A stretch of 64,000 nucleotides of DNA from Neoconidiobolus thromboides FSU 785. Taxonomy: Eukaryota > Entomophthoromycota > Entomophthoromycetes > Entomophthorales > Neoconidiobolaceae. The DNA lies in the NCBI GenBank assembly GCA_025603075.1, contig MU626278.1:1-64000 (forward strand). Reading direction: 5' to 3'. The notes under the pieces were generated by a model, which ran no database searches, was not told the origin of the DNA, and saw nothing but the letters and a program-made list of their open reading frames with translations. A program made the position numbers and the translations under genes. Positions 55,754 through 63,151 of the stretch are shown piece by piece (position 1 is the first letter of the stretch; the number at the start of each line of letters is the position of its first letter).

Positions 55754-58911
<3,158 letters not shown>

Positions 58912-59318: not shown

Positions 59319-62300
59319 TTACGCCGAATGTTTATTACATAGCCAGGCATGCCATATGGGCTGAATACCACGCGGTGTCTCGCTTTTATGATTAAAAGCC
59401 GTACACTTACGGTAACTTACTCCCAAGACTAAATTTTCATTCATACCCATATTGTCCTGTATAAACATTCTGGTTTCTTTTAGAGCAAGGTGTCGAATAC
59501 TAAGAAGTGCCTCTTGTGCTTTATTGATCCAGAATGAAATCCAGTTTGGATTTTCTCCATCTTCGTTGATTCCTCGAGAATTGAACATTTCTAGTGCTGC
59601 TGCTGTAATAGAGGAATCTACTGACTTATGAGAAGAACAGAACGATTCAATAACACAACTGAGTTTCTCAAAGTAAGTTACAAGATCCTTCTCATTAGAC
59701 GATACAATTGTATTAATGACGTCTGAATGAGCATTTCCTAGTATCTTTGAATCCGAATAAAAGGAGCATAGTTGAGAAACTATTGATAGAAGTGGCCCAG
59801 CACTACCAATAAAATCATGGGGTCTATTAAGTGGAATACCTGGGTGATTTGTAAAGTGAATGCTTAAAGAATCTTCACATAAGAAGTGGATCCTGAAAGT
59901 TTCGTGATTCCATTTATTTGGGTCTATCCAGGCATTCCCACAGTTCATTGTTGGTAAGACGACAACAAGACGTGGTGCTTGTATTTCGCTTGTAGCAACT
60001 ACTTGCTTACGAAGGGATGCAGCAAGCGAAAAAAGTTCTGGTGATAAGGGCTCTCTGTAAACTATAAATTTATCAGTTGATATATTGGGGGAGAAGCTGG
60101 GCAATGACTTGCATTGTAAAAGAAAATCTGAATCTAGGATATCAGAAGTGGTACTTCGTTTTAAGGGATTTTGATTTAAAAGTGATCTTATCACATCCGA
60201 AGCTTCAATCGGAAGTTGATTTACTTCTGGAAGGGTTAATATACCTTCTGAATCCCAATAAATTCCCTTTGAGATAAGATTTTTAGCATTATCAGAATTT
60301 AATAGTTTCAATATCTCTATTTCTGGAGTTCCAACACCCATATATGGCTTACGAACATATAGCTCCTAATACATATTAATAAAATATCAAACTAAATATT
60401 GAATAAACTTACATAGATAAAACAACCAAGTGCCCATACATCCATAGCAGGAGTTGCCGAAATTAGATTAGTTGAACTTTTTAAGAAAAGTGAAGCAAGT
60501 TCAGGAGGGCAATAGCGTGGGGGTTTGGATCCTTTAACTATATCGCCTTCAATTAAACAACGATCAATACGAGTAAGCATAATCCTGTTTGAAATAGAAT
60601 CTCCGGAAAAACATAAATCAATGGGTTGAAGATCTGAAATAACAACTCCCCTTGCATGACAGAAACTTAATAACTGTGCTACTTGTTTAACAATCATTCG
60701 AAGGTCATCATCAGATAATGGATATTTTTGTTTACGCAACAAATCAGTAAGTCCCATTCCACATGCTGAGTGTGTAATTACATAGCAAGACTTGCTCGAT
60801 GTATCAGATAAAGTATAGGTTTCTTTGATATGAGGTACATAAGGACCTTCTAAAATTTGAAGCATTTCAATCTCTTTTTCCCAAAGGGCCTTATTTAAAT
60901 AAATGAGTATTGTTACTGAGTTAGAAGAGGACACTTCTAGTGCAGTAGTGGCAAACACATCTTCTCTAGCGAATACTATAGGAGAAGTCATTTGATAAAA
61001 GTTACCTAATTTTTTAGCCAAAAGTGGTTCTAAGCCTAAATTTAAAGTATTAGGTAAGGAACGCTGTGAGAAACCTGAATTAGAAATTGGATTTGATTGA
61101 ATATTTGACATGCTTTGGAACAATTGAGCAGATTCTTGCCCTTCCCTAAGATTCGAATGTGTTCTTGAAATTACTATATCTTCTCTATATGGCCAATTTT
61201 GTATTGAACTAGTCGGTGTAGATAATTCATCTGGCGATCTGGAAAAAAGATTGACATTATCGATAGTACGCCCTAAGTGGGATATTCTTTCAAGTGGGCT
61301 CATCCTCTCATCATTTTGTCTGATTGACGTTGTACGAAACAAATTTGTATCAATTGAAAGTTGGGATGTAGCGTTGTGAGCAAGGGTCTTTGAAGGAAAG
61401 TAATCTATAGTCGGCGAAGCGGGCTCAGCCAAGGAGGGTTCTTTAAGTTCCTGTGATATACTTCTAGTATGATTTATTGTACTAGCAATATTTTCGCTTC
61501 TTTTTGAATCTAATGGGGAAAGAGGCCTCATGAATTTGATTGGAACTGGTGCAACAGAACTAGTAGCATCATCTTTACCTGAAAACATGCTATAAGATGT
61601 ACCATCAATCATGTCCCATTTATCGCTATTATCATTGTCGTCTTCACTTCTACTAACAGGGCGAGAAATCACCCGTGGTGTAGAAAGTAGCTTTGACTCA
61701 GAGGATGATTTTATTGGACTCAAATATTGGCCATTTATACTTGGAGTATTTGAATCATGAGCTGAGTATTGCGAATAACGTCCAGGTGTACCTATATTAG
61801 AATCTGGGAAAGTAGGTTGCATTAAATTACTATGATTCGCATTACTTTTATCGCTTATTGATTTATCTCCTTCTTTTTGATGCTTTTTGTTTTTTCTACG
61901 CCAGTGCCTTAAGCCTACTCCAATTATAGCCCCCATCATAAGAACTCCAAATAAAGCACTTACAATAGCTATTATAATAATATTATTAGATGAAGTTCCA
62001 GAGCTATTAGTGGTTCCACTATCATCACCGTCGTTAGGATCGTTTACGGATGTAGTACTAGGAGTTAATGCAGACCAGCTCCAATTAGTCGTATCAAGTT
62101 TATAAACAGCTGTACTAGAGGTTCCAACACCACCATAAATATATATATTCTTACCATCATCAGCTGCTGTATGTCCCATTAAATTTGAGGGTCCAGATTC
62201 AGAGTTGGAAGTTGACTGTTTTTTCCACTCTAACTGGAAAGTTTGAGTGTTCCAATTACTCATATCGAGAGTGTAAACCGACAATAAGTTAGGCTTCCAA

Positions 62301-63151
62301 TCAAGACCTCCTCCTCCAATTAGAATAGCCTTGCTACCTACGCATGATAAAGTTGCTCCTATTCTAGAACCTGGATTGTTTGCTAAGGCAGGATAATCAA
62401 ATTTAGTTTGAGCATTAAAAACTATTTCCTCTGTTATTGAAAATGTTTGAATTCTTTCCTCGAATTTCGTGCCATCATACCCTCCATAAACTATAACAAC
62501 CGATTTATCTTTCATATAACATGATGAATGAAAAGCAACAGGTTGACTATTCATAGAACGCAACCATTCAACTCTATCTATTTGATAGGATGAGAGCATT
62601 TCAATTGCTTTGTTACCAGGCTTTCCACTTGAATCCGGGACAATGCCTCCATATAACAACAATCGTTCTTTTATTGCCATTAATGTTGCGCCTATACGTA
62701 CTGGATCATCTAATGGGAAAGTAGGTGAATTACTAGAATTAGTCCACGTCCATTTGTCAGTGTTTAATGACAGTATTGGAATGTTTTGTTTTGATAAATC
62801 TGAAGCTGCTGTAAAAGTATGTACATAGTTTGAGCTTGTTACTGAAGAGTGGAATTTCATTGGGTATGTCGTTTTTTCCGTTTTCAATTTATACCATATG
62901 TTTTGATTTAGATCGAAAACCATTGTATCTGCATAAGGCTTTGCTGAATAAACATCAGCTGTCGGTTGTATACCGCCATGTATTATTAATTGGTTATTGA
63001 CTATTGCTGAAGAGTGAAGAGCTAAAGGCTTTGGATCAGCCTTTACAAGATTTGAAGACCCTAGAGAAAGTATTGGAGTTATTGATAAAAAAAATGAACA
63101 AATTAAAATGGGAAAGTCATTTATCTTTGATTTTATTAGAACTGAAAACAT
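59319..63151 (-). CDS. Kelch ectodomain / transmembrane / pseudokinase receptor-like protein
   Basis: Two exons (60413-63151, 59319-60365; intron 47 bases), 1261 residues. Residues 1-38 are a signal peptide; 40-360 are Kelch repeats (HSSAIVNNQLIIHGG, RIGATLMAIKERLLLYGGI, HSSCYMKDKSVVIVYGGYDG, RIGATLSCVGSKAILIGGGG, GHTAADDGKNIYIYGGVG). A Ser/Thr/Gly stalk leads to one membrane helix at 391-414, then RHWRRKNKKHQK marks the cytosolic side. 420-710 is Ser/Pro-rich with many Ser-Pro and Thr-Pro sites. 718-1010 is a kinase-like domain: HRD has become VISDLQPID (D840 kept), DFG has become RIDR, the VAIK Lys is missing (TILIYL), while the PPE and DVWALGCFIYEL motifs remain. 1045-1261 is a further globular module (PRLVVVLP...FRIHFLCED...HFTNHPG...WLCNKH). 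Expected at the plasma membrane as a sensor or scaffold; ligand unknown. Confidence 0.88.

What the first reader, a model, noticed from the sequence alone, without database searches (positions are those of the whole stretch)
59319..63151. Single-pass receptor with a Kelch ectodomain and a cytosolic pseudokinase in a fungus
Signal peptide, about five to six Kelch repeats, one membrane helix, a phosphosite-rich juxtamembrane region and a kinase fold are joined in one 1261-residue chain. Fungi generally lack receptor-like kinases, so this plant-RLK-like layout is unusual. The kinase lacks the VAIK Lys and the DFG motif but keeps the HRD-type Asp and the PPE and DVWALG motifs. It is therefore probably an allosteric scaffold or a sensor of extracellular carbohydrate or wall state. 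Ectodomain Kelch propellers can bind glycans or proteins.
Basis: partly seen in the sequence, partly recalled or inferred. Interest (0 to 1): 0.75.

Follow-up and report, generated by a model that had tools for sequence, protein, structure and literature searches.

The report
Fungal surface receptor with dead kinase
A fungus of the insect-infecting order Entomophthorales and two of its relatives carry a membrane protein with a propeller domain outside and, inside, a kinase-like domain that has lost its catalytic parts; this receptor layout is little known in fungi, and its most conserved piece is the membrane helix that joins the two halves.

Summary
On the minus strand, 63151-59319, a gene with one 47-nt intron encodes exactly 1261 residues, identical to K502DRAFT_363189 of Neoconidiobolus thromboides FSU 785. 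Pfam confirms a Kelch propeller and a kinase domain (67 bits, cut-off 31.7); hydropathy gives one helix at about 391-414. Massospora cicadina has the same order over its whole length, Entomophthora muscae up to the middle of the kinase, where its model ends; so it is no gene-fusion artefact. Best reading: a receptor pseudokinase signalling without catalysis. Ligand and partners are unknown; both AlphaFold models failed.

The parts
59319..63151 (-). whole coding region, 1261 aa, two exons
60413..63151 (-). exon 1, residues 1-913 (Kelch, membrane helix, linker, kinase-like domain through the DVWALG motif)
60366..60412 (-). 47-nt intron, GTAAGT..TAG
   Evidence: spliced product equals the public protein
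59319..60365 (-). exon 2, residues 914-1261 and stop
63053..63151 (-). hydrophobic N-terminus (residues 1-33), probable signal peptide
   Evidence: SignalP not run
62054..63034 (-). Kelch propeller ectodomain, residues 40-366, six blades by my reading
61910..61981 (-). single membrane helix, residues 391-414, most conserved segment, small residues at spacing four
61040..61909 (-). Ser/Thr-rich linker, residues 415-704, with SP/TP sites at 545, 618 and 645 kept in all three orthologues
60105..61039 (-). pseudokinase domain, residues 705-1000 (interrupted by the intron)
59322..60020 (-). C-terminal domain, residues 1029-1261, conserved in Massospora, no known family

Best explanation
A conserved type I receptor pseudokinase of Entomophthorales. 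Shown by sequence: Kelch propeller, one membrane helix, Ser/Thr-rich linker, catalytically degenerate kinase domain and a conserved C-terminal domain in one chain, in two genera over the whole length and in a third (whose model lacks both ends) from the propeller to the middle of the kinase. Inferred: the propeller is outside the cell and binds a ligand or wall component; the membrane helix pairs with itself or with a partner helix; the change is passed to the pseudokinase, which works without phosphotransfer, as an allosteric scaffold for an active kinase and for whatever binds the C-terminal domain; the conserved SP/TP sites of the linker are targets of proline-directed kinases (MAPK or CDK type) that tune it.
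For: Exact gene model and public protein. Massospora orthologue, 429 of 1245 aligned columns identical, 34%; E. muscae, 292 of 844, 35%. Pfam Kelch and Pkinase over cut-off in this protein and in the Massospora one. The catalytic loop DLKPEN reads DLQPID, NFQPAD and DFQPTD; the DFG place reads LTR, LAR, LAR; beta-3 reads VTIL or VAIL in place of VAIK, in my own register. Membrane helix plus basic stretch: 27 of 32 identical to Massospora and 26 of 32 to E. muscae, against 33% and 37% in the Kelch part; the best 32-residue window elsewhere has 22 of 32 against Massospora. C-lobe 46% and C-terminal domain 43% are kept better than the ectodomain, which argues for a working inner part. Three proline-directed sites kept in all three.
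Against: No experiment, ligand, partner or localisation is known. The signal peptide rests on hydropathy, is weak in Massospora (no N-terminal 19-residue window over 1.6) and lies outside the E. muscae model. The Massospora protein has four further stretches over 1.6 (peaks 1.61 to 2.18) inside its kinase-like and C-terminal parts and E. muscae one at 590-610; N. thromboides has none, so I read them as buried core, but one membrane pass is less certain there. AlphaFold gave mean pLDDT 28.9 and 34.3, so no fold is confirmed. Only three sequences, one incomplete. A degenerate kinase may still have some activity.
Confidence: 0.6

Rival explanations
1. The pseudokinase is a regulatory hinge, like the kinase homology domain of receptor guanylyl cyclases (recalled), for an effector function that sits in the C-terminal domain 1029-1261.
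For: C-terminal domain 43% identical to Massospora, about as well kept as the kinase-like part; its start (window at 1031, 22 of 32) is the best window outside the membrane helix. Order ectodomain, helix, pseudokinase, extra domain.
Against: No Pfam match listed at E up to 10, nothing significant in PDB (best E 0.81), structure model unusable; no enzyme motif recognised.
Confidence: 0.2
2. A static wall or polarity landmark: the Kelch ectodomain fixes the protein at a cortical site and the cytosolic part only recruits polarity or MAPK proteins, with no ligand-driven switch (Rax2-like logic, recalled).
For: Many other Kelch membrane proteins with short tails in the same genome (38 of 43 frames have a helix); a wall-anchored role needs no diffusible ligand.
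Against: A landmark would not obviously need about 500 conserved cytosolic residues nor so constrained a membrane helix.
Confidence: 0.15
3. An active but unorthodox kinase that uses relocated residues.
For: HRD Asp present in N. thromboides and E. muscae; Lys, Arg, Lys at place 754 just after beta-3.
Against: The Asp is Asn in Massospora; DFG and the catalytic-loop Lys and Asn are missing in all three, and no glycine-rich loop is visible.
Confidence: 0.05

Closest known systems
Plant receptor-like kinases and pseudokinases such as EFR with BAK1
   Same: Single-pass, ligand-type ectodomain, cytosolic kinase fold; non-catalytic activation of a partner kinase is reported for EFR (abstract of PMC11259431)
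   Different: Kelch ectodomain; kinase not shown to belong to RLK/Pelle; fungus; additional C-terminal domain; EFR itself is an active kinase
Animal receptor pseudokinases (ROR, PTK7, ErbB3; recalled)
   Same: Receptor layout with a degenerate kinase; the helix scores weakly against Pfam TM_ErbB1 (E 0.00098 in E. muscae, 0.004 in Massospora, 0.15 here, all under the cut-off)
   Different: Ectodomain and C-terminal domain differ; no tyrosine-kinase kinship shown
Attractin and Rax2-type Kelch membrane proteins (recalled; the ATRN-LZTR1 propeller model matched)
   Same: Kelch propeller outside, single helix
   Different: To my knowledge no kinase-like domain in them
Other Kelch membrane proteins of the same genome (e.g. 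L017-L026)
   Same: Kelch propeller and a following membrane helix, many with a hydrophobic N-terminus (24 of 43 have both)
   Different: Tails of 1-166 aa in 37 of 38 and 438 aa in one, read without introns; Kelch part only weakly similar (best E 6e-8)
Kinase folds in PDB (PLK4, CDPK, Snf1, Tribbles and others)
   Same: Detectable kinase homology (best E 4.9e-11 with the three-sequence profile)
   Different: Degenerate motifs; no clear kinase group

Membership tests
Protein kinase superfamily (fold) | Pfam PF00069 over curated cut-off | tested here: met
   67.4 bits vs 31.7; Massospora 45.9; the incomplete E. muscae model 18.5, under the cut-off
Protein kinase superfamily (fold) | predicted structure with kinase fold | tested here: inconclusive
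   AlphaFold mean pLDDT 28.9; no fold search run
Active protein kinase | beta-3 Lys, HRD Asp, DFG Asp all present | tested here: not met
   the beta-3 register is my own reading
Pseudokinase | kinase homology with loss of catalytic residues, shared by orthologues | tested here: met
Pseudokinase | no phosphotransfer | not testable with these tools
   needs an assay
Single-pass type I receptor | one membrane helix between ectodomain and cytosolic part, basic residues on the inner side | tested here: met
   N. thromboides, hydropathy; Massospora and E. muscae have the same helix plus weaker stretches inside later domains
Single-pass type I receptor | cleaved signal peptide | tested here: inconclusive
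   hydropathy only; weak in Massospora, outside the E. muscae model
Single-pass type I receptor | ligand-dependent signalling | not testable with these tools
   needs an experiment
Kelch propeller | Kelch or propeller models over cut-off | tested here: met
   PF24681 98.8 bits vs 50, PF24981 82.8 vs 50
Plant RLK/Pelle | kinase domain of the RLK/Pelle clade | tested here: inconclusive
   the PDB matches shown are mainly CMGC, CAMK, PLK4, Snf1, CK2 and Tribbles (60 of 1104, 60 of 697); no tree was built
Receptor guanylyl cyclase | C-terminal cyclase domain | tested here: not met
   no Pfam match listed for 1031-1261 at E up to 10

The most novel reading that the evidence does not exclude
Entomophthoralean fungi evolved a receptor system of their own: a repertoire of some 38 mostly short-tailed Kelch membrane proteins that recognise surfaces, and one long-tailed Kelch receptor pseudokinase that serves as their common signalling partner through its nearly invariant membrane helix and feeds a pathway through a so far undescribed C-terminal domain.
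Probability: 0.15. Interest if true: 0.85.

Novelty: new variant of a known kind. Interest (0 to 1): 0.6.

Why it matters
A survey that included 49 fungal genomes found LRR receptors almost absent from fungi (five examples kept), listed LRR receptor kinases for land plants, oomycetes, a choanoflagellate, some metazoa and one Chlorella, and saw no evidence of LysM receptor kinases in fungi (PMC2939053, passages and section 6). A conserved receptor pseudokinase in Entomophthorales would be a way in which a fungus reads its surroundings through a kinase fold without catalysis, and names one gene with which surface sensing can be tested in the order that holds E. muscae and Massospora.

Tried and rejected
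Two separate genes or a fused gene model: rejected, since one 919-aa frame runs from the Kelch part through the helix into the kinase-like part, and two other genera have the same order.

Structure prediction: the three-sequence alignment led by the Massospora protein (1154 aa) gave mean pLDDT 28.9; the C-terminal domain with two sequences gave 34.3. I ran no fold search, because such models give meaningless matches.

They returned the protein itself, and with the Kelch part two orthologues (in some only 7988 candidates were scored, in 22 there were 105). Searches missed the Massospora orthologue although it shares exact words with the query (QVVATSEI), so nothing can be said about absence from Conidiobolus, Zoophthora, Basidiobolus, Mucoromycota or other fungi.

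Paralogues: in its own genome the whole protein finds itself and three weak kinase matches, E 8e-5 to 8e-4; the C-terminal part finds only itself at E up to 10; a degenerate DNA pattern for its FRIHFLCE motif hits only this gene, with 0 in the reversed control. I recall a similar pattern in Mucoromycota proteins but could not test it.

Kelch and kinase matches of the genome were compared by eye (147 rows, 67 rows): no other Kelch-then-kinase pair on one strand lies within a few kb; the one close same-strand pair (C72, about 3.4 kb) has the reverse order. This would miss kinases as degenerate as the present one, which itself did not list.

Kinase loci with long frames: 7 loci looked at (L002, L005, L008, L062-L065); none of their nine frames of 300 aa or more reached the 1.9 used for membrane helices (best 1.73). 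A small sample, single frames only.

Papers: 10 of 10 searches used. In the rows that I saw no paper on this protein or on a fungal Kelch-kinase receptor appeared: searches (20 of 155; 20 of 177; 5 of 5; 15 of 63; 15 of 19; 12 of 567; 10 of 82; 3 listed of 5; 10 of 29), 77 (1 of 1); open-licence papers only. The E. muscae genome paper (PMC11105155, term counts and passages) has 0 mentions of Kelch, receptor or pseudokinase in its main text. The paper on the origin of pseudokinases that I wanted (PMC6997932) is not held.

Full report
Identity. The window is contig 21 of a 23.1-Mb, 392-contig genome. The spliced protein is letter for letter K502DRAFT_363189 of Neoconidiobolus thromboides FSU 785, of the Entomophthorales. 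The gene lies on the minus strand, 63151-59319, with one 47-nt intron at 60412-60366 inside the kinase-like domain. Its downstream neighbour on the same strand is an alanyl-tRNA synthetase gene (PF01411, E 1.3e-152 for the frame 56834-58564), unrelated to the finding.

Anatomy. Residues 1-33 are hydrophobic. Residues 40-366 match propeller models; PF24681 has 98.8 and PF24981 82.8 bits, both over the cut-off of 50. In PDB the nearest by sequence are KLHDC2 chains at E 6.9e-7 (11 sequences matched). GG doublets at 59, 168, 223, 279 and 340 with the Trp places fit six blades, the second without GG (the count is my reading). A helix at about 391-414 follows (peak 2.81) with RHWRRKNKK after it. 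Residues 425-700 hold 71 Ser/Thr in 276, and nine SP/TP sites lie in the linker. PF00069 covers 758-995 with 67.4 bits against a cut-off of 31.7, profile positions 46-263. Residues 1029-1261 match nothing in Pfam and nothing significant in PDB (best E 0.81).

Orthologues. A search with residues 1-480 returned three proteins: the protein itself, Massospora cicadina L0F63_004843 (P0002, 1154 aa) and Entomophthora muscae DSO57_1027147 (P0003, 741 aa). Massospora aligns over the whole length, 34%. The E. muscae model lacks the N-terminus and stops inside the kinase after RYCP; I think that an intron was missed there but could not check. Identity to Massospora by part: Kelch 33% (101/309), membrane helix plus basic stretch 84% (27/32), linker 30% (59/196), N-lobe 39% (37/94), C-lobe 46% (84/184), C-terminal domain 43% (98/230). 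To E. muscae: Kelch 37% (108/293), helix 81% (26/32), linker 32% (67/209), N-lobe 39% (37/94), C-lobe part 52% (43/82). Of all 32-residue windows compared with Massospora the top twelve overlap the helix (up to 28 of 32); the best elsewhere has 22, the median is 10. All three helices carry small residues at spacing four (A395/A399, S398/G402, G407 with G or A at 411), a pattern known (recalled) from self-associating helices. Against a simple topology, Massospora has four and E. muscae one further hydrophobic stretch inside the kinase-like or C-terminal parts (peaks 1.61 to 2.18); N. thromboides has none over 1.6 there, so I read them as buried core.

Catalytic residues. By HMMER's alignment to Snf1, HRDLKPEN corresponds to ISDLQPID (838-845) and DFG to LTR (859-861). 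Massospora has VNFQPAD and LAR, E. muscae VDFQPTD and LAR. The beta-3 place reads VTIL here and VAIL in both others; this register is mine, because the Pfam match starts later. No glycine-rich loop is visible. PPE and the DxWALG motif of the C-lobe are kept in the two proteins that cover them. So all three have lost the two lysines, the metal-binding Asn and DFG, and Massospora also the catalytic Asp. The kinase group cannot be named: with the single sequence the best PDB matches are Snf1 and then mainly p38, PLK4 and CDK12 (60 of 1104 shown), with the profile PLK4, CDPK, Snf1, CaMKII, RSK, CK2, CDK12 and Tribbles within a narrow score range (60 of 697 shown).

Setting in the genome. PF24681 finds 67 six-frame matches. 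The loci around them other than the window's own (46 loci, L015-L060) hold 43 distinct frames of at least 250 aa with at least two GG marks. Of the 43, 38 have a membrane-helix-like stretch after residue 100, 26 a hydrophobic N-terminus, 24 both. The tails after the helix are 1-166 aa in 37 of the 38 and 438 aa in one (L025), in which Pfam finds Kelch-type domains only. Frames were read without introns, so some tails may be longer, and a few of the 43 may not be true Kelch proteins. The Kelch part of the finding is only weakly like these (best E 6e-8, L046) and far closer to the two orthologues (E 1.5e-50 and 1.0e-48), so I infer an old lineage of its own, not a recent fusion of a local copy. 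No whole-length paralogue was found in its genome.

Mechanism. Shown: domain order, degeneracy, conservation pattern. Inferred: ligand binding outside, helix pairing, scaffold role. Strong constraint on the helix and the cytosolic parts with a faster ectodomain is what a receptor with fixed inner machinery and an adapting outer surface would show. The EFR/BAK1 case shows that a receptor kinase domain can activate a partner without its own catalysis (abstract of PMC11259431). The C-terminal domain is about as conserved as the kinase-like part and is the best candidate for partner or effector contacts.

Literature. In a survey with 49 fungal genomes LRR receptors were almost absent from fungi, fungi are not among the groups listed with LRR receptor kinases, and no evidence of LysM receptor kinases was seen (PMC2939053, passages and section 6); a later paper cites it for complete absence of LRR receptor-like kinases in fungi (PMC11376283, passage). 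A fungal kinome survey reports one exceptional expansion of TKL kinases, in Laccaria, and has 0 mentions of Kelch or transmembrane in its main text (PMC2838846, passages). [quoted passage not shown] the receptor layout is what stands out.

Limits. Three sequences, all from annotated gene models, one incomplete; no usable structure model; no eukaryote-wide search beyond three capped ones, two of which missed a known orthologue. Statements on rarity therefore rest on the literature seen, not on my searches.

Noticed in passing
own genome, loci L015-L060: A large set of Kelch proteins with a following membrane helix and mostly short tails (38 of 43 Kelch frames), an expansion that could be a surface-recognition repertoire.
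   Followed up: partly
L017, L018 and L025 frames, after the membrane helix: Three of the Kelch membrane proteins printed share a P-(I/L)-W motif in the cytosolic tail (NPLWS, TPIWS, QPIWC), perhaps a shared binding site.
   Followed up: no
window 59874-59897 (-): The C-terminal domain carries a FRIHFLCE motif that a degenerate pattern finds nowhere else in the genome; it reminds me of a domain of Mucoromycota proteins (recalled, untested).
   Followed up: partly
window 61187-61534 (-), residues 540-655: Short linker motifs R(P/S)LSPL, SPLxRI and TPxxSxQNWP are kept in all three genera inside an otherwise variable linker; possible docking or phosphorylation sites.
   Followed up: partly
P0003 (E. 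muscae), C-terminal end: The public E. muscae model ends just after RYCP inside the activation segment, probably a missed intron.
   Followed up: no
window 56834-58564 (-): Alanyl-tRNA synthetase gene directly downstream on the same strand; ordinary.
   Followed up: yes
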